This document shows, piece by piece, positions 5,350 through 34,926 of a DNA stretch of 34,926 nucleotides. The translations under genes were made by a program, and so were the position numbers. The stretch lies in assembly GCA_031257535.1 (NCBI GenBank), contig JAIROO010000148.1:1-34926 (forward strand). The letters run 5' to 3'. Below the pieces are notes generated by a model, which was given only the letters and a program-made list of their open reading frames with translations, was not told the origin of the DNA and searched no databases. Position 1 is the stretch's first letter, and each line of letters starts with the position of its first letter. The DNA is from Deltaproteobacteria bacterium (GTDB lineage Bacteria; Desulfobacterota; Desulfarculia; Adiutricales; Adiutricaceae).

Positions 5350-8300
5350 TTAAGCCGCTGGATCCGGAGGCAAAGACTTTAAGCGACTTTCCAGGTTAAT
5401 GCCTTGGCGGTACTCCATGGGAAAAACTTTAATAAACCTAGCTTTTTCCCGAGCCCAGCCTTTTAAGATTTTTTTGGCGATGGCGCTATTGGTGTACTTT
5501 AAGTGACGGTTAATTAGAGCGTTTAGCTCCTCTTCGTCCTCGCGGTCCATTAGATCCAGATCGACCATCTCCAGGTTACAGTGATTGTCGAACAGACCGT
5601 CTTGATCGTAGACGTAAGCGAGACCCCCACTCATGCCCGCGGCGAAATTAACCCCGGTCGGGCCTAAGACCACGACCCGGCCGCCAGTCATGTATTCGCA
5701 GCCATGATCGCCCACGCCTTCGACCACGGCCAAAGCCCCACTATTCCTGACCGCGAACCTTTCGCCCGCTAAACCGCTTAAGTACAATTCTCCGCTCGTG
5801 GCCCCGTAAAGAGCCACGTTACCGACAATGGCGTTTTCCGAAGGCGTAAAATCCTCGCGGGCGTCAAACGGGGGCCTAATAATTAACTTGCCCCCCGATA
5901 GGCCCTTACCCACGTAATCGTTGGCCTCGCCAAAAAGCTCAATGGTCACCCCTTTAGCCACAAACGCCCCAAAGGATTGACCGGCCACCCCGGACAGCTT
6001 TAAATGGATAGTGTCGTCCGGTAATCCCGCGGCCGCCCATTTACGGACGACCCGACTGGAGATCTTGGCCCCCACCGCCCGATCGGTGTTTTTGACTTCT
6101 CGGTCGAGAACTATAGGGGTTCGGTTCTCGATGGCCGAAGCGACCTCGGGCAATAAGCGGTCGTCTAAGGAGTCAGCCGGACTTTTGGGCGCGTAGGCCT
6201 CAAACGATAAACCTTCTTGGGCGGGTTTATACAAAACGTCGGCGAAGTCTAAACCGCGCTCCATTAAAAAGGTCGAGTCAGAGCGGGGGCTTAGGCGGTC
6301 GACTTGGCCGATCATCTCCTTGACCGTCCGATAACCTAAGCTAGCCATGATTTCCCTTAGTTCTTGAGCCACAAAAGTAAAGAAGTTAACCACGTGCTCG
6401 GGCTTGCCCGCGAATCGAGCTCGCATCCGGGGGTCTTGAGTGGCCACGCCGACCGGGCAGGTATTGGTGTGACATTTGCGCATCATCAAGCAGCCCATAG
6501 CCACCAGTACCGCGGTCGCGAAACCAAACTCGTCGGCCCCCAGTAAAGCGGCCACGGCCACGTCTCGACCGGTCTTCATCTGGCCGTCGGCTTGGAGTCT
6601 AACCCTAGTCCGGAGATTATTTAAAACCAGCGTTTGCTGGGTTTCGGCCAAACCAATCTCCCAAGGCGAGCCAGCGTATCTAATGGAAGACAAAGGTGCC
6701 GCCCCAGTGCCGCCATCAAACCCCGAGATTAAAATGGACTCGGCCATGGCTTTAGCCACGCCAGCGGCGATGGTGCCAACTCCCACCACGGAGACTAATT
6801 TAACTGAGACCGTGGCTTTATCCGCGGCTTGATGTAAGTCGTAAATTAGTTGCGCGATGTCCTCAATGGAGTAAATGTCGTGGTGCGGCGGCGGCGAGAT
6901 CAATGTCACCCCCGGAGTCGAGTGCCTGACTCTGGCTATTTCGCTATCGACTTTATGACCAGGTAATTGCCCGCCTTCCCCGGGTTTCGCCCCTTGGGAG
7001 ATTTTAATTTGCAGTTCTTCGGCGTGGGCTAGGTACTCGGCCGTCACCCCAAACCGACCACTAGCCACTTGTTTGACCGCTGAGATGGTCGACTGACCGT
7101 CGGGCCGAGGTTTATATCTTTCTGGATCCTCCCCGCCTTCGCCAGAGTTCGACCGAGCCCCTAAGCCGTTCATGGCTAAAGCCATGGTCACGTGAGCTTC
7201 CCGCGACAACGAGCCAAAGGACATGGCCCCGGTGGCGAAGCGTTTCACGATCTGGCTGACTGGCTCAACCTCGTCTAAAGGTACTGGCGGCCGGTCTAAA
7301 CGGAAGGCCAGCTGACCTCTTAAGGTAAAAGCTTGGCTTGACTGGTCGTTAATTAAGGCAGCGTATTTTTTATAGAGCTCGTAATCGCCGGTTCTGACCG
7401 CTTCCCTTAAAGCCACCACGCTCTCGGCCGTCCACAGATGAGGTTGGCCGTCATGACGATAACGATAAGCTCCGCCCACCGGCAAAGGTTCTTCGGGCCC
7501 GGTTAGATCGGGTTTTAAGTAGTTAGCGGCTAAAGACAAGCGAGTGGCCGCGCCCTTTTCCAGCTGAGCCAAAGACACCCCGCCCACCCTCGAGGGGATG
7601 CCGGGAAAATACTTGTCCATGAGATCGGAGCCTAAACCCACGGCCTCAAAAATCTGGGCTCCTCGATAACCTCTTAAAGTCGAGATGCCCATTTTGCTCA
7701 TGATTTTTAACAAACCTTTTTTTAAGGCGTTAACGTAATTTTCGACGGCCGTGGTGGGACTTAAATCCGTGGCTAAACACCGGCGTCGGGCTAAATCGGC
7801 CACCGTCTCGTAGGCGAGATAAGGGTTAATGGCCGAGGCGCCTAAGCTTAGGAGCATGGCCATATGACTTACTTCCAAAGCGTCCCCGGTCTCTAAAACG
7901 ACCCCAATGGAGACGCGTCTTTCGATCTCTATTAATTTCCGATTAACCGCGGCCACGGCTAACAAAGACGGAATAGGCAACTCAGGTTTAACCCCGTCGC
8001 TTTTAGGTCGCCCCGCCGCCCGGTCGGAGACGACTATGATGTGGGTGCCCGCTCGAGCCGCCCTAGCCGCCTCTTCTTCTAAACGATTTAAAGCCTTGGC
8101 CAGAGCCTCGCCAGGCTTTTGGTGAGGCGAAGGCGGCGCGAAGGTCGCCGAGATGGTCGCGCAATTAAAGTCGTCGTACCGCAAATCCGCGAGCCGCCCC
8201 AAGTCGTCGTTGGACAAAAAGGGATGAGTTAGCTTAATAAGACGGGCTTGATAAGGCTCTTCGTTTAAAATGTTGGGATCGTAACCAATGAAGGTCATGA

Positions 8301-9912
8301 GGGACATAACCAGTTCTTCCCGGATGGGATCAATAGGCGGGTTAGTTATCTGGGCGAACTGTTGTCGAAAAAAGGAAAACAAGGACTGAAATTTTTGGTC
8401 CAAAACGGCCAAAGGCGTGTCCGCGCCCATAGAACCATTAGGCTCGGCTCCATTTTGGGCCATGGGGCTTAGGATAATCTCCGTGTCGTCGCGGGTATAA
8501 CCAAAAAGGGTTTGCCGATAAGCCAGATCTTCTAAACTTTGGGAAAAATCCGGGGTTAAGGCGAAAAAACCCGGAATGTCGATCCGATTTTCCGAAACCC
8601 AGCGACGATAAGGCCTTCTTCTGGCCAATAAACTTTTGACTTCGGTATTTTTTAACAACCGCCCAGACCCCGCTTCGGCTAAGATCATCTGACCTGGCCG
8701 TAAGGAGCCTTTTTCCACGATTTTGTCGTTGTCAAAGGTTAAAGCCCCGGACTCGCTCGCGAAAACCAAAAGCCCGTCGTCGGTTAAGCAATAACGGGCT
8801 GGCCTTAAACCATTGCGATCTAAAGCCGCCGCCACTTTCCGGCCATCGGAGACGACGACGGCCGCTGGACCATCCCAAGGCTCCATCAGGCCGGCGTGAT
8901 ACTCAAAAAAGCCCCGTAAGTTGGTGCTCATGGGATATTTTTGGCCCCAGGCTTGCGGGAGGAGCATGGATAAGGCGTGCTCTAAAGACCGTCCACCTCG
9001 AGTTAAAAACTCCATGGCGTTGTCTAAGCTAGCCGAGTCCGAGCTCTCCGGCTCAATCACTGGCAAGATCTTTTTAATGTCGTCCCCGTATAAAGGCGAG
9101 GCGAAACTCGGCTCCCGGGCGGTTAACCAGGCCCGGTTGCCTTTGATGGTGTTAATCTCCCCGTTATGGGCCAATCCCCGAAAAGGCTGGGCTAAACGCC
9201 AAGAAGGAAAGGTGTTGGTGCTATATCTTTGGTGAATGACGGCTAAGGGCGCCTGGAAAAGAGGGTCGTTTAAGTCTGGGTAAAAGGCCCCTAACTGCTG
9301 GCCAAAAAGCATGCCTTTGTAAACTACGGTCCGCGAGGAAAGACTGGGGACGTAAAACTCGTCGGCCGAAAAACCCGCCTCTTTGGCTCTCCGCTCTAGA
9401 CATTTGCGCAGAACGTAAAGCCGTCTTTCCAAGGCCTCAAAGTCCAAGGGCTCGCGATTAGGCGAATCAACCACGAACTGCCAAACCGCGGGACAGGTTT
9501 CCCTGGCCATTTGCCCTAGGGCCTCGGGCCGAGTCGGAGTCTTCCGCCACTTAAAGAGACGAAAACCCAAAGCTTTAACCTGATTTTCGACTAACTCACG
9601 AGCTCGGTCGGCGGCGGCGGGATCTTGAGGCAAAAACAAAAGACCTAAACCATAAGAGCCAAACGGCGGCAAGTCTGAGCCAAAATGTTCCCGTAGAAAG
9701 AGATCCGGCAAGGTAACGAGAATACCAGCTCCATCGCCGGTATTGGCGTCGGCTCCGGCCGCGCCGCGATGGGTCATGTTCACGACAAGTTTTAGGCCTA
9801 AACTCACCACCTCATGACTGGCCTGGCCATCCAGTCGGCAAAGGCAGCCGACTCCACAAGAATCCCGCTCGTAAGCTGGATCGTAGAGACCGATTTTCTT
9901 TGGATAAGACAT
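5350..9912 (-). CDS. gltB: Glutamate synthase large subunit (start taken at internal ATG 9912, MSYPKKIG; track ORF extends to GTG at 9924)
   Basis: SCGVGC N-terminal nucleophile region, HRGAAGADANTGDGAG, GEGGEDPERY, GFDGGTGAAPLSS, C-terminal GXGXG-type beta-helix domain. Confidence 0.96.
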   Translation of the reverse strand: MSYPKKIGLYDPAYERDSCGVGCLCRLDGQASHEVVSLGLKLVVNMTHRGAAGADANTGDGAGILVTLPDLFLREHFGSDLPPFGSYGLGLLFLPQDPAAADRARELVENQVKALGFRLFKWRKTPTRPEALGQMARETCPAVWQFVVDSPNREPLDFEALERRLYVLRKCLERRAKEAGFSADEFYVPSLSSRTVVYKGMLFGQQLGAFYPDLNDPLFQAPLAVIHQRYSTNTFPSWRLAQPFRGLAHNGEINTIKGNRAWLTAREPSFASPLYGDDIKKILPVIEPESSDSASLDNAMEFLTRGGRSLEHALSMLLPQAWGQKYPMSTNLRGFFEYHAGLMEPWDGPAAVVVSDGRKVAAALDRNGLRPARYCLTDDGLLVFASESGALTFDNDKIVEKGSLRPGQMILAEAGSGRLLKNTEVKSLLARRRPYRRWVSENRIDIPGFFALTPDFSQSLEDLAYRQTLFGYTRDDTEIILSPMAQNGAEPNGSMGADTPLAVLDQKFQSLFSFFRQQFAQITNPPIDPIREELVMSLMTFIGYDPNILNEEPYQARLIKLTHPFLSNDDLGRLADLRYDDFNCATISATFAPPSPHQKPGEALAKALNRLEEEAARAARAGTHIIVVSDRAAGRPKSDGVKPELPIPSLLAVAAVNRKLIEIERRVSIGVVLETGDALEVSHMAMLLSLGASAINPYLAYETVADLARRRCLATDLSPTTAVENYVNALKKGLLKIMSKMGISTLRGYRGAQIFEAVGLGSDLMDKYFPGIPSRVGGVSLAQLEKGAATRLSLAANYLKPDLTGPEEPLPVGGAYRYRHDGQPHLWTAESVVALREAVRTGDYELYKKYAALINDQSSQAFTLRGQLAFRLDRPPVPLDEVEPVSQIVKRFATGAMSFGSLSREAHVTMALAMNGLGARSNSGEGGEDPERYKPRPDGQSTISAVKQVASGRFGVTAEYLAHAEELQIKISQGAKPGEGGQLPGHKVDSEIARVRHSTPGVTLISPPPHHDIYSIEDIAQLIYDLHQAADKATVSVKLVSVVGVGTIAAGVAKAMAESILISGFDGGTGAAPLSSIRYAGSPWEIGLAETQQTLVLNNLRTRVRLQADGQMKTGRDVAVAALLGADEFGFATAVLVAMGCLMMRKCHTNTCPVGVATQDPRMRARFAGKPEHVVNFFTFVAQELREIMASLGYRTVKEMIGQVDRLSPRSDSTFLMERGLDFADVLYKPAQEGLSFEAYAPKSPADSLDDRLLPEVASAIENRTPIVLDREVKNTDRAVGAKISSRVVRKWAAAGLPDDTIHLKLSGVAGQSFGAFVAKGVTIELFGEANDYVGKGLSGGKLIIRPPFDAREDFTPSENAIVGNVALYGATSGELYLSGLAGERFAVRNSGALAVVEGVGDHGCEYMTGGRVVVLGPTGVNFAAGMSGGLAYVYDQDGLFDNHCNLEMVDLDLMDREDEEELNALINRHLKYTNSAIAKKILKGWAREKARFIKVFPMEYRQGINLESRLKSLPPDPAA

Positions 9913-26528: not shown

Positions 26529-28868
26529 ATGCGTTTAGCTACAATAATAATTTCCGCCTTATCTTTTACCTCTCTATTTATGCTTTTAACACTATCGTTA
26601 CAGTTTTGGGGTCGAAGAATCCTAAAATTAGTTAAGATTAGGGATACAGAGACGAGATATGGCCAGCCTTTAACCCTAGTCGCGGGTCTGGCTTTACTCG
26701 TTCTTTTGGCTGAAATTCTTTATACTTGGCTTAATGACTATAGTTTATTTTTATTAATTTTTTATTTATCTGGTCTTATTGGCTTAATAATAGAATTATA
26801 CTTATTAATTAGAATTTATAAATTAAAAGAGACATTAGCAAAATTTTTTAACGTTGAATTTATATTAATATTATTATTTTTCTCGTTTTTATTGGCGGGC
26901 CTCTATTCAGCCCTCTGGTCTTCTGGCTTAATGGAAAACTGGATGGGTTACAGTTTTGATTATTATACTTGGATTTACCTAAGCGATCTTTTGACCGGGG
27001 GCAACGTCAACGACGCGATTGGAGCTAATATCCTTCTCAATCGCCTTGTTTATGACGCTTTTGGAACTTATATTATTATCAATTTTGTGGCTACGGCTCA
27101 CTTTAACCTGCCACTTGACGCCGCCGCGTCGATCTCGGTGACCTTCTTAGTCTGGGGGGCGGCCGCGATTTACGCCTTAATCCGCCAAGTTTTTGGGCTC
27201 AATTTTTGGCTTTCGGCTCTTTTGACTTTGGGCGTGGCTTTCGGCGGTCTTTATAATTATGTGTCTATTTGCGGCATGTTCGGCCATCAACTGGCTTTGG
27301 TGGCCTTTTTAGTCGCTTTGACCCAATTCTTTCCGGCGTTTGGCGAGGACTGGCCGACTAGTCAGGTGGCTAGAAGAGTATTTTTCCCTCTTTTTTTCTT
27401 ACTTCTTTCCTATCAGGCTGGTTACCAGCTTTTCGCCATAATAATCGTCTTCGCTGGCTTTTTATTGGCGTATTTCAATCTAACGCGGCAAAAATTTATC
27501 TCAAAGGTAATTAAATCGATAGGTTATGGCCTGAGGCCGGTCCTTTACGCGACGATTGTAAGCGCGATTTTAGCCCCAGGCTCATTCGCCTACATGATTC
27601 GTCGGATATTTGAAGTGGCCGCCCAAACCGCCGGCTGGGGTCTACCTTTTTTTAGTCCTTGGCATTTTTCCGGGATTCCATATTACTCGCCAAATGCTTT
27701 TCTAGTTCCGGCCAAACTCCTTCCGGCCGATGGTTTAACGTTAGCCACTTATTTACCTTTAATAGGCCTCACCGCGGCTTTGGCTTTTATGGTTTACTTT
27801 ACAACCGCGAGAGCGAACCAACCCTTACAACCAGCGAACGATAAGTCCCTTAAGGCTGGCCCAATCCTCACCCTGACTATCGTTTACCTATTATCTCTGG
27901 CGGGTTATCTGGGGCTTTCTTTCTTTTTCGGGCACTTTTACCAGATCTGGAAATTCCCGGTTTACGTAATTCTGCCCTTATCTTTTGTCCCTTTAGGCCT
28001 TTTCTTTTTAGCCCTAAAACGCCTTGCGGTTAAAAAATTGACTAAACTGCCCGCTTTAGCGGCTTTCCTCTTAGTTAGCGTTTTAGGCTTAAAATTTGCG
28101 GCTATGCCAGCTTTAACCGATTGGCCTTTTAAATATTATTCTATAACATCCGCTAATTCTTTTATTAACGCTCTTAAATCAATAAAATCTACTATTCCTA
28201 AAAATTTTACAGTCATTATTGATTTTAAATCTTACGCTCGTAAATTTATTGCCGCTCTAATGTTTACAAAAGATCAATTTAAGAATATAAATTTAATTTT
28301 TTATTCATTCTATTTTTTAGGCGATGCATTTTTTTATAATTTAATTAATAATAATACAATTATCGTTTCTGACTCAAAATTTGATCATATATATAATTTA
28401 CATAATACAAAATTTCAATGGGGCGACTTATATATTTATGATTACGATAAGATTAATAACAACGGTTATATAGCCTTCAAAAGTGGCTCGTTTAATTTCG
28501 ATTGGACCATTGATCTTTTACCACTTCATGCGGCTATTAAGCTACCCAAAGATAAAATCGGCCAAGAGCTAAATATCTCGGTCACCCTAAAACCTAAAGA
28601 CAACGCGCCGCCAAACTCCAATAACCGCGCGGCCAGGCTTGGCATACTCCTCTCTAGCGGCGAAACTATCTGGTCCGACTGGGCCAATTCCAAAGGTAAC
28701 GAAGGGCCACGGCCAAAAATCGCGGTCCCAGCCGAACTGACGGCTAAGGGTAGTTTATGGGTCATTGTCGAGCTTAGTCCAAGGTTAAATGAGCCTTATA
28801 ACCCAAAAGAGCCTTCCTTAGCGTCCCGCATAAATGAATTTGATATTCTAAATTTTGATATAAACTAA
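26529..28868 (+). CDS. Large multi-pass membrane protein (779 aa), paralog of 182..2494
   Basis: Many TM segments; same N-terminal and YQIWKFPVYVILPLSF motifs as the first copy; mosaic AT content. Confidence 0.8.
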   Translation: MRLATIIISALSFTSLFMLLTLSLQFWGRRILKLVKIRDTETRYGQPLTLVAGLALLVLLAEILYTWLNDYSLFLLIFYLSGLIGLIIELYLLIRIYKLKETLAKFFNVEFILILLFFSFLLAGLYSALWSSGLMENWMGYSFDYYTWIYLSDLLTGGNVNDAIGANILLNRLVYDAFGTYIIINFVATAHFNLPLDAAASISVTFLVWGAAAIYALIRQVFGLNFWLSALLTLGVAFGGLYNYVSICGMFGHQLALVAFLVALTQFFPAFGEDWPTSQVARRVFFPLFFLLLSYQAGYQLFAIIIVFAGFLLAYFNLTRQKFISKVIKSIGYGLRPVLYATIVSAILAPGSFAYMIRRIFEVAAQTAGWGLPFFSPWHFSGIPYYSPNAFLVPAKLLPADGLTLATYLPLIGLTAALAFMVYFTTARANQPLQPANDKSLKAGPILTLTIVYLLSLAGYLGLSFFFGHFYQIWKFPVYVILPLSFVPLGLFFLALKRLAVKKLTKLPALAAFLLVSVLGLKFAAMPALTDWPFKYYSITSANSFINALKSIKSTIPKNFTVIIDFKSYARKFIAALMFTKDQFKNINLIFYSFYFLGDAFFYNLINNNTIIVSDSKFDHIYNLHNTKFQWGDLYIYDYDKINNNGYIAFKSGSFNFDWTIDLLPLHAAIKLPKDKIGQELNISVTLKPKDNAPPNSNNRAARLGILLSSGETIWSDWANSKGNEGPRPKIAVPAELTAKGSLWVIVELSPRLNEPYNPKEPSLASRINEFDILNFDIN

Positions 28869-29837: not shown

Positions 29838-29851
29838 GTGAACGCTTACAA
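29838..29851. repeat. Left member of a 14-bp inverted repeat flanking the ATPase operon; IS-end-like
   Basis: GTGAACGCTTACAA; exact reverse complement TTGTAAGCGTTCAC at 33944-33957. Confidence 0.6.
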
Positions 29852-29889
29852 GTTTATGAGCCCGCTTTAATCTTTTTTAAGGGTTAAAC

Positions 29890-30561
29890 ATGAAGGACCT
29901 CAAACCAATTTACATCTTATTTCTCTGGAACTTAGCCACAAGTGGGGGCTCGATCTGGCTTAAAGACAATCTTTTAAGTAGCGTCAAAGCTAAGGACCGT
30001 AAAATATTACAGAATCTTAAGCTCATTTTTGAGTCCCAAGATAAAGACCCCGCCGTTCCTAAAGCCAAAGCCAAGACTCGGATTCAGCTGGCCGAGGCTG
30101 GCTGGGGCTATCTCGCCGACCATATGAGTTCGCCAATTAACTCTCGCTCGCCATATAGCTCTGTCATTTTTAGCCAATTCCTAGGCCGCATAAGCCTCTT
30201 TCTGGAAAGCCGCTCCCTTAAACTAGCCGATATTTTCTCGCCTCCCCCGCTCCCGGAACCAGACGAGGTTATGACTAAAGCTCTGGCTCTGCCCCTTGTT
30301 CGGGAACGTTTAGAAGCCATCCGAGCGACCAGTTACAACCCTGTGGCTGGCCTACGCTTAGCGGAACTAAGGCCCCAGTTAACCACCATCCCTCGCGATA
30401 TCTTGGATGAGTCTCTTATTGAACTCCAAAACCAAGGTTATCTAACTCTTCATGATCTAAGCGACTACCCTGGCCAATTGACTGAGGCTGATAAAAAAGC
30501 GGCCCTTTATTTATCCGGCCATCCCCGTCATCTCATTTATCTAAAAGTTGGAGTGGCTTAA
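29890..30561 (+). CDS. Uncharacterised 223-aa protein, C-terminal winged-helix-like; first gene of a two-gene operon
   Basis: ATG with upstream AAGGG; C-terminal ...LAELRPQLTTIPRDILDESLIELQNQGYLTLHDLSDY reads like a winged helix; stop overlaps next ATG (TAATG). Confidence 0.7.
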   Translation: MKDLKPIYILFLWNLATSGGSIWLKDNLLSSVKAKDRKILQNLKLIFESQDKDPAVPKAKAKTRIQLAEAGWGYLADHMSSPINSRSPYSSVIFSQFLGRISLFLESRSLKLADIFSPPPLPEPDEVMTKALALPLVRERLEAIRATSYNPVAGLRLAELRPQLTTIPRDILDESLIELQNQGYLTLHDLSDYPGQLTEADKKAALYLSGHPRHLIYLKVGVA

Positions 30562-33500
30562 TGGACTCTACGTTAAACGAGCTAGAAGTTTTCTTGATGG
30601 CCGATTTCGAGAGCGTGTTTTCATCTGAAAGCGTCTGGAAAGACGACCTCATCGACGTGGCGGAAATTCACCAGGCCGAAAGAGCGATATTTAAAAGGGA
30701 GCTTATCCGTCTACTCGCTAGGCCTTCGGACTCCTCGCCTTCAGGCCTACGCATATCAGGCGACGCTGGCTCAGGTAAAACCCATTTGCTCGCGGCTTTT
30801 CGCCGAGAAGCTTTCGCGCGCGAGGCTTATTATATTTACGCTGGTTTTATGAGAGCCAACGACTTTGACTCTTGTCTCGCCAAAAAAACCTTAAACTCAT
30901 TATCTCAGATCGGCCCAGATGGACGAACGCAAGCGGGGAAGCTGATCGAAAACCTTCTACTCGCGGCGGATGTCAACGATATGAAAGTGGACGACTTGGC
31001 CGAATTGTCGCCCAACGATTTTAAAGACAATTTTAAACGGGTCGCCAACTCCCTCAAAAAGAAATTTCTCGGAGCTCTCCCGAGCGAACAACATTTAAAG
31101 GCCTTTTTCCTTTTCGCCTCAAACGATCTCTTTCTTTCAGAGGTAGGCGAAAATTGGCTTTTAGGGAACAATTATGACAATAAATTTAAAACCTTTGATT
31201 TACCCAACCTGAAAGTCAATCCTTTACAAGTCGTTATAGACACTACCCGGTTAATTAACCTGACCAAGGGAGCCACTGTCTTGGTCATAGATCAAATCGA
31301 CGATATCTTTAATCAGCTTTTAAAAGACAACCTAAACCAGACGGCCGCGGTTCAAAATTTCTGCTGGAAACTGGCCTCTCTAGTTAACGACTCCCGTCGT
31401 TGCTTAGTCGTGGTCGCCTTTTTAACCGCCACCGCCCGCGATATGAACGGAATGGCTCAAAAAGCGTCTCTCCAGAGATTTCCGAACTTGTTTAACCTCT
31501 CGCCTTTATCTGACCTTAACTGCCTGGAATTACTAACTCGCGGTCGGATGGAAGCAGCCTTTCAAGAGACCGGTTTTAAACCGCCCTATCCAACTTGGCC
31601 TTTTCCGCCTAGTTTTATTAAGTCCAAACAGGGGTTAACGCCGCGAGAATATTTGACTCTCTGCAATAATTATCAGACGCAATGCCTGTTAGCGGGCAAA
31701 ATTATCGGCATTGACGAACCCAAAATCGCGATTTCTAAGAACCGATTGAATGAAATTATCAAGTTCTTCAATAATTGTTTCGCGAGCACTAACGTTAGCC
31801 ACTGGCTAGACCCAAATGCCGAAGACACGTTCTGGCCAAAGGCTTTAAATGTTTTCGCCAAGTGTTTCCGCGCCGAAAACGAGGACAACCTCCCCAAAGA
31901 CGAGGCTCTTATAGATGAGTCTTGCGCTAGCGTATCCCCCAAAGTTCCGCCTTCGCTCCACGCTCTACTTCACTACGAACACCAAAAAGGTCAAGACATT
32001 GACCGTTTCTTAGGGATCCGGGCTTTATTTCAGACAAACCCTAGAACTTTTATTACTCGTCTAACGAAAATCATGAAGGAAGTTGGCGAGGGCAATCTAA
32101 ACCGCCAGTTTATTGTGATCCGGCCAAATGTCAATTTTTCTGGCTCCAAAACATTGGCCTTGGTGGATAGGTTCAGCCAAGATGGCGGTAAATTTATCCA
32201 ACCCACTGATAAGCACATAAAGTTCTTGTCCGCGCTATTGGAAACGAGCGAAAAGTTTCCTAAATTATGGCTCGAATTCGCCAAAAATAAGCGTTTAACA
32301 AAAAAAATAGATTTTTTACAGGATGAGCTAAATTTATTGCTTAATGGCCCCTCAAAGGACCAATCGCCGACCAAACCTAACGTAAATCAACCACCGAGTG
32401 ACGCTCAACCGCCGCGTAGCGACGCTCAACCACCGAGTGACGCTCAACCGCCGCGAGACGAAAAAACTCCGTGTTCAAAAAACCCAAAAGGTCAGAAGGG
32501 CTCCACTCAGTGGATATATGTTGGTCAAAATATGACCAACCATAACGAAGATTTCTATCTAAATCCGCAAAATTTAAACAAACACACTATAATCTTTGGC
32601 GGCTCTGGCTCCGGCAAAACGGTTCTTATTCGACGCCTAGTCGAAGAAGCCGCTCTGTTGGGGGTACCGTCCATTGTCGTTGATATTGGCAACGATCTGG
32701 TCAGTTTAGGGCAAAAGTGGCCTTCCCAACCGACTACCTGGAGTCAAACTGACGCGGAGAAGGCTAAAGAGTATTTCGCCAAAACTAACGTCCGAATTTA
32801 TACCCCAGGTTTAACCGGGGGTCGGCCGGTTATCCTGGCCGCCTTACCCGACTTTTCGACCCTAGCCAAAGACAGCGATTATGAAGGTGAAATCGATTTA
32901 GCCACTAATTTTTTGGCCAGCTCCATAAAGCTTTCCACTCAATCCAAAAAAGCCGAAATCGAGAAGGCTTTACTGAATAAGGCCGTAGAAAGCCTAGCCC
33001 AAGCGGGACAATCTGACTTAGACGCTATTATCAATTTTTTGGAAAATCTCTCCAAAGAAGCCGCCGAGATCAGCCAAAACGCCGAACAGATAGGCCGCGA
33101 ACTCGCCAGCGCGTTCAGAGCCTTAAAGATTAACAATCCCCTTTTTAGGAGCGGCCAAACCATCAATATCGACCAAATCTTGGCCCGGGAAAATGGGCAA
33201 ACCGCTATTTCCGTTTTTAATCTTTCTGGCTTAGGCCCTCTAGATTCCCAGCGCGCCTTCGTCAGCCAGTTAACCCAGACCTATTTCCTCTGGGCCAAAA
33301 AAAAGCCCTCGTCTACGTTGCAAGGGCTTTTAGTCATTGACGAGGCTAAGGATTTCGCCCCAGCCTTAAAATCCTCCGCCGCCAAAACGGCCATAGATCG
33401 CTTCGCTAGTCAAACTAGAAAATACGGTTTAGGGCTTATTTTAGCCACCCAAGAACCGAAAAGCGTCGACAGCCATATAGTCAACAACTGCGCCACCCAA

Positions 33501-33710
33501 TTTTTCGGCCGACTGTCATCCCCCGCCAACATTCAGACCGCGGAACAAATTTTAGGCGTTAGCCGGGTCATCGGAAATTTAAAAAAAGGCGAGTTTTATA
33601 CCCTCGGCGAGGACAACGTCAAACCATTAATTAAAATTTCTCTGGGATTATCGGCCCATCAAGGAGCAGTGAGCGAAAAGGAATTAATCAAATTAACGAA
33701 AATTTTCTAA
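30561..33710 (+). CDS. Dual P-loop ATPase: N-terminal AAA/STAND-like module plus C-terminal HerA/DUF87-like module
   Basis: Walker A GDAGSGKTHLL with Walker B TVLVIDQIDD; second Walker A GGSGSGKTVLIRRLVEEA with Walker B LLVIDEAKDF and ATQEPKSVDSHIVNNCATQFFGRLSSP. Confidence 0.85.
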   Translation: MDSTLNELEVFLMADFESVFSSESVWKDDLIDVAEIHQAERAIFKRELIRLLARPSDSSPSGLRISGDAGSGKTHLLAAFRREAFAREAYYIYAGFMRANDFDSCLAKKTLNSLSQIGPDGRTQAGKLIENLLLAADVNDMKVDDLAELSPNDFKDNFKRVANSLKKKFLGALPSEQHLKAFFLFASNDLFLSEVGENWLLGNNYDNKFKTFDLPNLKVNPLQVVIDTTRLINLTKGATVLVIDQIDDIFNQLLKDNLNQTAAVQNFCWKLASLVNDSRRCLVVVAFLTATARDMNGMAQKASLQRFPNLFNLSPLSDLNCLELLTRGRMEAAFQETGFKPPYPTWPFPPSFIKSKQGLTPREYLTLCNNYQTQCLLAGKIIGIDEPKIAISKNRLNEIIKFFNNCFASTNVSHWLDPNAEDTFWPKALNVFAKCFRAENEDNLPKDEALIDESCASVSPKVPPSLHALLHYEHQKGQDIDRFLGIRALFQTNPRTFITRLTKIMKEVGEGNLNRQFIVIRPNVNFSGSKTLALVDRFSQDGGKFIQPTDKHIKFLSALLETSEKFPKLWLEFAKNKRLTKKIDFLQDELNLLLNGPSKDQSPTKPNVNQPPSDAQPPRSDAQPPSDAQPPRDEKTPCSKNPKGQKGSTQWIYVGQNMTNHNEDFYLNPQNLNKHTIIFGGSGSGKTVLIRRLVEEAALLGVPSIVVDIGNDLVSLGQKWPSQPTTWSQTDAEKAKEYFAKTNVRIYTPGLTGGRPVILAALPDFSTLAKDSDYEGEIDLATNFLASSIKLSTQSKKAEIEKALLNKAVESLAQAGQSDLDAIINFLENLSKEAAEISQNAEQIGRELASAFRALKINNPLFRSGQTINIDQILARENGQTAISVFNLSGLGPLDSQRAFVSQLTQTYFLWAKKKPSSTLQGLLVIDEAKDFAPALKSSAAKTAIDRFASQTRKYGLGLILATQEPKSVDSHIVNNCATQFFGRLSSPANIQTAEQILGVSRVIGNLKKGEFYTLGEDNVKPLIKISLGLSAHQGAVSEKELIKLTKIF
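32387..32455 (+). repeat. In-frame 39-nt tandem repeat in the linker of the dual ATPase
   Basis: Two identical 30-nt blocks tcaaccaccgagtgacgctcaaccgccgcg at 32387-32416 and 32426-32455 (period 39 nt = 13 codons). Confidence 0.92.
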
Positions 33711-33943
33711 TTTCGCCGAGATCTGGCTTTTAGGCAATATCCAGCAGCTAATTTAGCCGACTTATGACTTATTAGGTATCAACAACACAATATTAAAATA
33801 AATATTATCATCAACTTTTGTGAACGGTTTGTTCTTTGCTTGGCCAACCACTATATAGTTCTAAAGCAATAGTAATAAAACTGCGGCTAAACCAAAGTAT
33901 AGGTATTTTACTCTCCTAACTAGTTATCTAAAGCCAAAAATTA

Positions 33944-34067
33944 TTGTAAGCGTTCACGGCCCCTTTTAGCCATCATGAACCAGGCAGTCGTCTACCGCCT
34001 GAAAGCTCAAATCTACCTTAAGGTTGCTTGGTTAGGAGCAAGCTTTCACATACAGAGAGAGCCTTAA
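33944..34067 (+). mobile_element. Possible IS terminus plus truncated transposase N-terminus (IS21-like HTH segment?)
   Basis: TTGTAAGCGTTCAC then ATG at 33975 giving MNQAVVYRLKAQIYLKVAWLGASFHIQREP*, reminiscent of an IstA-type HTH start; decayed. Confidence 0.35.
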
Positions 34068-34173: not shown

Positions 34174-34920
34174 TCAATAAATCTTGGCTAAGACATAGGC
34201 TCTTTCGACTATGCCCACAGCCATTTTTTTAGCCACGGGAAATTCTTGATCAAATCCAGCGGCGTATTTCCTTAGGCTTATTTGTTTGATCGCGCCGTCC
34301 ACCGCCTTATTAAGGAGCTTTTTTATGTCTTCTTCGGTCGCCTCGTCCTTTTCGCCGGTAATTTTTTCGAATTTGATTTCGACTATAAAAACCGCCTTTT
34401 TGGGAATCTCAATAAATAAATCGAAGACTCCCTCCGAGACGCTGACCTCGCATTTGACCTTAAAATGGAGGGCCTTTAAAACGGAATAGATGAGGGCGTG
34501 ATGGTAACCTTCCAAAGCCCTTTGCTCTTGATAAGGAACCCACCGTAAAATAGTTTCCAAATATTTCGCGACGGCCGCCTCGTCAAAAGCCAAAAGGGCC
34601 GTCTTGATATTGGCGGCCAACTCAAGGATATGGCTTTCTCGGCACCCGGTCATAGCCGTCAAAAGGCTCGCGTTTAAGGCCTGGTCGACTTCCAAGTTGG
34701 GGCAACGGAGATTAAACTTGTCGAATCCAAGCTTTTTTTCGATCGTTAGATAACCAGTTTGGAAAAGGAGAGGGGCGAGCGTAAGTTTGGCCACGTCTAC
34801 CGCGTTTAAGCTGGACTGACGCAGCTCATAGCTTTCGGCTCGGACGTAATCAATCGGATTTCGCTGGATAAGCTCCAGAAGGAAACTAGGCGTTCCAGTA
34901 TAGAACCAGAAAGATTCCAA
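34174..34920 (-). CDS. C-terminal part of AAA-ATPase-like/PD-(D/E)XK nuclease superfamily protein (DUF1703-type), truncated by window edge
   Basis: FWFYTGTPSFLLELI, ...VFDLFIEIPKKAVFIVEIKFEK (D...ExK); N-terminal ATPase half presumably beyond 34926. Confidence 0.8.
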   Translation of the reverse strand: MESFWFYTGTPSFLLELIQRNPIDYVRAESYELRQSSLNAVDVAKLTLAPLLFQTGYLTIEKKLGFDKFNLRCPNLEVDQALNASLLTAMTGCRESHILELAANIKTALLAFDEAAVAKYLETILRWVPYQEQRALEGYHHALIYSVLKALHFKVKCEVSVSEGVFDLFIEIPKKAVFIVEIKFEKITGEKDEATEEDIKKLLNKAVDGAIKQISLRKYAAGFDQEFPVAKKMAVGIVERAYVLAKIY

Positions 34921-34926
34921 GGATTT

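What the first reader, a model, noticed from the sequence alone, without database searches (positions are those of the whole stretch)
29838..33957. Candidate undescribed system: wHTH-like protein coupled to a double-ATPase (AAA/STAND-like + HerA/DUF87-like)
Seen: two genes overlapping by one base (TAATG). The second encodes two complete Walker A/B sets in one chain. HerA-type ATPases paired with other NTPases or nucleases recur in prokaryotic defence modules (e.g. DptFGH, HerA-nuclease pairs) and in DNA-translocation machines. The locus lies beside IS-like remnants and a PD-(D/E)XK gene. Inference: a putative anti-phage or mobile-element-control module in which the HerA half pumps DNA and the wHTH protein is the specificity subunit.
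Basis: partly seen in the sequence, partly recalled or inferred. Interest (0 to 1): 0.65.

Follow-up and report, generated by a model that had tools for sequence, protein, structure and literature searches.

The report
Nuclease-less HerA defence-type gene pair
Two overlapping bacterial genes encode a probable DNA-binding protein and a two-motor ATPase that, in several other bacteria, sit in a three-gene operon with a DNA-cutting enzyme and resemble a recently predicted class of DNA-pumping anti-invader systems; here the cutting enzyme appears to have been lost.

Summary
S (29890-30561, 223 aa) and AH (30561-33710, 1049 aa) overlap by one base, and AH has two complete P-loop ATPase modules (AAA_16, then HerA/DUF87). 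The pair is conserved: S lies directly upstream of an AAA or AAA-HerA gene in 28 of 31 loci scored. In Tsukamurella, Nonomuraea, a Methylobacterium plasmid and several genera of the window's own family, a DUF559 nuclease gene (X) precedes it: X-S-AH. This matches, without proving, the Orc/CDC6-coupled "HerA/FtsK capture" systems predicted in 2024 (PMC10853773).

AH is mainly vertically inherited in this family and sits at a syntenic place after ybaK, so it is not freshly mobile. Yet AH and S diverge much faster (35-46% identity) than neighbouring genes (55-90%). The adjacent PDDEXK_9 gene is one of about 19 genomic copies and not a partner. The real nuclease X is absent from this assembly, and its usual slot after rarA is empty.

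Best reading: a DNA-capture/restriction-type complex, here a nuclease-less variant. The defence role is inferred, not tested. Interest is moderate.

The parts
29890..30561 (+). S: 223-aa protein, probable wHTH DNA-binding partner of the AAA half
   Evidence: ORF; conserved directly upstream of A/AH genes in 28 of 31 loci; weak wHTH matches in relatives and family profile
30561..33710 (+). AH: 1049-aa AAA-HerA double ATPase, start overlaps the S stop codon by one base
   Evidence: ORF; Pfam AAA_16 and DUF87; full-length relatives
30561..32360 (+). AAA half of AH (residues 1-600); also occurs as a separate gene (A) in relatives
   Evidence: Pfam AAA_16; stand-alone A genes
30759..30785 (+). Walker A of the AAA half, GDAGSGKTH (residues 67-75)
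   Evidence: G67, G70, G72, K73, T74, H75 invariant in 12 proteins
31290..31301 (+). Walker B of the AAA half, DQID (residues 244-247); Q where E is usual
   Evidence: D244, Q245, D247 invariant in AH and AAA-only proteins
32373..32510 (+). Pro-rich linker of AH with an imperfect DNA repeat
   Evidence: direct repeats at 32387-32473; variable in relatives
32511..33680 (+). HerA half of AH (about residues 651-1040)
   Evidence: Pfam DUF87; PDB HerA chains such as 8wiv and 8xau
32598..32624 (+). Walker A of the HerA half, GGSGSGKTV (residues 680-688)
33339..33344 (+). Walker B of the HerA half, DE (residues 927-928)

Best explanation
S and AH are the DNA-binding and ATPase core of a DNA-capture, restriction-type anti-invader system. 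The complete form is a three-gene operon X-S-AH, where X has a C-terminal DUF559 PD-(D/E)XK nuclease domain. S, with one or two winged-helix domains, binds DNA and docks on the AAA half of AH. The AAA half binds ATP (intact Walker A, unusual DQxD Walker B) and acts as a loader or clamp that places the complex on target DNA. The HerA half forms a hexameric ring that pumps double-stranded DNA, and X cuts what is delivered. In this genome X is missing from the assembly and its usual slot is empty, so the window holds a nuclease-less derivative that blocks or displaces invader DNA, borrows another nuclease, or is on its way to loss. Shown here: genes, motifs, conserved pairing and operon order, mainly vertical inheritance in the family, rapid divergence, absence of X. 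Inferred: DNA binding by S, ring assembly, translocation, cutting and the defence role.
For: Two intact ATPase modules in one chain. HerA half related to solved hexameric HerA proteins. S precedes A or AH in 28 of 31 loci. X-S-AH as one operon in two actinobacteria, an alphaproteobacterial plasmid and genera g10/g11 of this family. X carries DUF559 with conserved acidic residues. S and AH diverge far faster than neighbouring genes. G262 copy lies by duplicated tRNA genes and near a SIR2-HerA pair. Same logic as the capture systems of PMC10853773.
Against: No experiment. In this family the parts are mostly vertically inherited at fixed chromosomal places, unlike typical defence genes. X is missing in this genome and in some other members. 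Defence-island context was seen in single cases only. wHTH folds in S rest on weak hits. Structure predictions failed.
Confidence: 0.58

Rival explanations
1. A domesticated chromosomal DNA-metabolism complex (repair, end processing, replication-fork or segregation work) specific to this bacterial family. An ancestral cassette was duplicated and dispersed to fixed places (after rarA, after ybaK, beside a histidine kinase) and now serves the host rather than fighting invaders.
For: HerA halves group by genus; AAA paralogues form old lineages at fixed slots; usually one X per genome; X sits beside rarA, a replication-associated gene, in five genomes of the genus.
Against: Absent from several genomes of the same family and from nearly all of the rest of the phylum sample. 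S and AH are among the fastest-diverging genes of their neighbourhood. Copies occur as one operon in distant phyla, including a plasmid.
Confidence: 0.25
2. A decaying remnant: with X gone, S and AH no longer do anything useful in this genome and are drifting.
For: X, S and A are absent at the rarA slot; repeat ends flank the pair; fast divergence.
Against: Both reading frames are intact, all ATPase motifs are kept, and S-AH without X is also found in G011, a 94% complete genome of another genus.
Confidence: 0.1
3. A function of a mobile element (conjugation, maintenance or transposition) rather than of the host.
For: HerA half scores weakly against conjugation ATPases such as VirB4 and TraD; the non-family copies found come from the plasmid collection.
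Against: No relaxase, integrase or transfer genes beside the pair in the window and synteny across the genus. The VirB4-type scores are weak and confined to the P-loop domain.
Confidence: 0.07

Closest known systems
Orc/CDC6-coupled HerA/FtsK capture systems (Rakesh, Aravind, Krishnan 2024, PMC10853773)
   Same: AAA ATPase plus HerA, an active REase, a fast-evolving small protein with probable wHTH domains, in one or a few overlapping genes; same inferred logic of interception and cutting
   Different: The window's genome lacks the REase. AAA and HerA are fused, genes are vertically fixed and dispersed in this family. Orc/CDC6 clade, inactive REase domain and wHTH count could not be verified, nor whether this exact family is in the paper's supplement
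MADS (mad8)
   Same: mad8 profile is the best PADLOC hit of the HerA half (E 5e-23)
   Different: The same profile matches an unrelated SIR2-HerA HerA equally well (8e-22), so the hit is generic; no other MADS profile matched S, X or AH
SIR2-HerA (Gao19/Nezha) and other HerA-effector pairs
   Same: HerA ring-type ATPase working with an effector protein
   Different: No SIR2 gene beside the window pair; HerA here is fused to an AAA module and paired with S
DndFGH / SspFGH
   Same: HerA half has weak similarity to the HerA domain of DndH over its length (E 2e-8)
   Different: No DndF or DndG match for the AAA half or S; no dnd genes in the window
BREX-Related Capture systems (PMC12839542)
   Same: HerA plus AAA ATPase and DNA-binding protein, class offshoot
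   Different: No PglZ, DUF6079, DUF4007 or TGT gene in the operons seen here

Membership tests
Orc/CDC6-coupled HerA/FtsK capture system | HerA/FtsK ATPase | tested here: met
   DUF87 E 3.9e-16 with intact Walker A, Walker B and arginine region
Orc/CDC6-coupled HerA/FtsK capture system | Orc/CDC6-clade AAA+ ATPase | tested here: inconclusive
   AAA_16 above cut-off; weak matches to DnaA, DnaC, IstB and others; clade not resolved
Orc/CDC6-coupled HerA/FtsK capture system | inactive REase between AAA core and C-terminal wHTH | tested here: inconclusive
   conserved alpha/beta stretch near AH 500-600, but structure model unusable
Orc/CDC6-coupled HerA/FtsK capture system | active REase in the system | tested here: not met
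   Met in relatives (X, DUF559) but no X in this 84.5% complete assembly and the rarA slot is empty. The window copy is therefore called a variant, not a full member
[quoted passage not shown]
   weak MarR-like and Z-alpha-like matches in the N- and C-terminal halves of the S profile
MADS | MADS-specific partner genes | tested here: not met
   only mad8 matched, and it matches HerA in general
SIR2-HerA | SIR2 effector next to a stand-alone HerA | tested here: not met
   S and the genes read around the pair show no SIR2; AH is an AAA-HerA fusion
DndFGH | DndF and DndG partners | tested here: not met
   no DndF or DndG match in PADLOC for S or AH

The most novel reading that the evidence does not exclude
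A HerA capture system that became a fixed, dispersed chromosomal machine in one bacterial family, generally with one nuclease, several paralogous AAA subunits with a built-in DQ (E-to-Q) Walker B, and one or two AAA-HerA motors. In this genome it acts without any nuclease, for instance by loading on and clearing or silencing foreign DNA rather than cutting it.
Probability: 0.15. Interest if true: 0.65.

Novelty: new variant of a known kind. Interest (0 to 1): 0.42.

Why it matters
The capture class rests on sequence analysis; I found no experimental test of it in the papers searched. This work defines a compact three-gene version (DUF559 nuclease, wHTH-like protein, AAA-HerA fusion) for which PADLOC and NCBIfam have no dedicated model. 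It gives complete operons in named organisms that could be tested. It also shows a family where the same parts are vertically fixed, duplicated and, in this genome, nuclease-less, so one can ask what the ATPase core does without cutting.

Tried and rejected
MADS membership: the mad8 profile also hits an ordinary SIR2-HerA HerA. The adjacent PDDEXK_9 gene as partner: 19 family matches in the genome, opposite strand, different family. A composite transposon bounded by the 14-bp inverted repeat: the pair is at the same place in other genomes of the genus. IS66 origin of that repeat: only one weak IS66 transposase match in the genome, so the element is unidentified. I first took the gene next to X for rpoN; Pfam shows it is rarA/mgsA. 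Structure prediction was limited to window sequences without homologues and failed (pLDDT 48 and 34), so no fold search was run. A viral-contig scan with the AH alignment found only HerA-half relatives; the S and X alignments had no stretch conserved enough to scan with. Phage records: no match. Profile comparison of the AAA half with X or S gave nothing. No tool named the organism and I do not claim one.

Full report
Observation. The two genes exist as described: S at 29890-30561 and AH at 30561-33710 on the plus strand, overlapping by one base in TAATG. AH has an AAA_16 module (47-167, E 5e-11) and a HerA/DUF87 module (652-906, E 3.9e-16), both above the curated cut-offs. The window protein S has no significant family hit. 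The window is the first 34,926 bases of contig C39 of a 3.70-Mb, 362-contig, 84.5% complete assembly.

Relatives. In a search of 60 genomes, full-length AH relatives (27-44% identity) or its separate halves occur in most genomes of the window's family, and S relatives in 25 of the 60. In a phylum sample of 395 genomes the AAA half was found outside this family in only one genome, G262; the other matches outside the family cover just the HerA part. One genome of a neighbouring family, G038, also has the pair. In the plasmid collection three distant relatives appear: Nonomuraea gerenzanensis, Tsukamurella tyrosinosolvens and Methylobacterium aquaticum (the same three with the Tsukamurella protein). 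Phage records gave none. Other phyla could not be sampled as whole genomes.

The three-gene operon. In Tsukamurella a DUF559-domain protein, a 223-aa hypothetical protein and the AAA-HerA protein overlap in one operon. The same order is read in Nonomuraea (7157-8257, 8261-8968 and AH ending at 12291 of L050) and Methylobacterium (7240-8301, 8318-8998, 8995-12249 of L052). The first gene, X, matches DUF559 above its cut-off in six proteins tested and PDB 3hrl at 3e-10. The alignment keeps E236, D270, E281, D283, H287 and D300 invariant (Tsukamurella numbering), as expected of an active PD-(D/E)XK enzyme. In the window's family X precedes S-AH in g10 and g11 and S-A in g4 and, after rarA, in g1; in g5 and g2 X precedes AH, with S and an AAA-only gene following. 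S is followed directly on the same strand by A or AH in 28 of 31 scored loci; of the other three, one is at a contig end and two have an unidentified next gene. S is therefore the partner of the AAA half.

Motifs. The alignment of 12 AH proteins keeps GxxGxGKTH, DQxD and two arginines (R306, R329) in the AAA half, and a GSGSGKTV-type Walker A, a Walker B (DE in 11, DD in one) and the R-K/R/Q-Y/F region in the HerA half. The AAA Walker B has Q in place of the usual catalytic E in every protein aligned, including AAA-only paralogues. From general knowledge of AAA ATPases, E-to-Q here slows hydrolysis but not binding, so I infer a clamp or loader rather than a motor. That is untested.

Evolution. 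In the genus, S-AH follows ybaK in four other genomes with contigs covering the place. HerA halves of g1, g7, g10 and g11 each form one group, and the three outside bacteria nest among the family (the root is uncertain). AAA-half paralogues form separate lineages: one beside a histidine kinase in four genera, one of AAA-only genes in the window's genus that includes the two copies after rarA, and the AH line of the genus. Inheritance is thus mainly vertical in this family, with transfers outside. Divergence is fast: against three genus relatives S is 35-43% and AH 42-46% identical, while FprA is 82-84%, the rubrerythrin-like protein 85-90%, the HldE-like kinase 65-70%, DnaE 59-63% and YbaK 56-65%.

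The missing nuclease. In five other genomes of the genus X lies next to rarA. In the window's genome X is not found, and its rarA locus reads coaE-rarA-rpoB, with no X, S or A. X is absent from that place; because the assembly is incomplete, a copy elsewhere cannot be excluded. The PDDEXK_9 gene at 34174-34926 belongs to a repeated family (19 matches), and nothing supports it as a substitute.

Defence context. In G262 the S-AH pair is followed by a tRNA-His/tRNA-Arg block that is present twice, and then by a SIR2-HerA pair with strong PADLOC matches. In Tsukamurella the operon lies with a VapBC pair and a helicase between rplN and rpsQ, inside an otherwise contiguous ribosomal protein cluster. 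These are single cases, not a statistical enrichment.

Comparison with the known. PMC10853773 describes gene neighbourhoods with an Orc/CDC6 ATPase, an inactive REase, an active REase, HerA/FtsK and a wHTH, in one or several proteins, some with a fast-evolving protein of 2-4 wHTH domains, and proposes interception and cutting of invader DNA. A 2026 paper (PMC12839542) describes a BREX-related offshoot. The three-gene operon has the same logic and is probably a member of that class; the Orc/CDC6 clade, the inactive REase and the wHTH count could not be verified. The window's own copy lacks the active REase, so I call it a variant and not a full member. Whether the authors' supplementary lists include this family could not be checked. 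The best PADLOC hit, mad8, is generic.

Conclusion. The finding is real and more than chance. The defence reading is plausible and the class is already predicted. The copy in the window is a nuclease-less, vertically inherited variant whose function is untested.

Noticed in passing
window 29838-29851 and 33944-33957: Perfect 14-bp inverted repeat (GTGAACGCTTACAA) flanks the S-AH pair. It has four exact copies and five one-mismatch copies in the assembly (none for the reversed control), several close to contig ends, so it looks like the end of a repeated element; the element is not identified.
   Followed up: partly
window 34174-34926 (minus): Truncated PDDEXK_9 gene of the AAA-ATPase_like family; the family has 19 matches in this genome.
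   Followed up: yes
window 26529-28868: A 779-aa membrane-protein-like ORF lies between fprA and ybaK, where genus relatives have the two genes adjacent; a similar-looking 770-aa ORF is at 182-2494.
   Followed up: no
window 32387-32473: Imperfect short tandem repeat encoding the Pro-rich linker (QPPSDAQPPR-like) between the two ATPase halves.
   Followed up: no
L074, L075, L076, L078, L079 (X genes): In the window's genus X often matches the nuclease profile twice, which suggests a duplicated, possibly partly inactive nuclease domain.
   Followed up: no
G001 contigs C175 and C210 (L094, L093): Two similar contigs in one assembly carry ybaK-S followed by the AAA half, either a duplication or mixed strains.
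   Followed up: no
L141 8891-11677: The G262 AH is shorter (928 aa), with a reduced HerA half and an altered Walker A.
   Followed up: no
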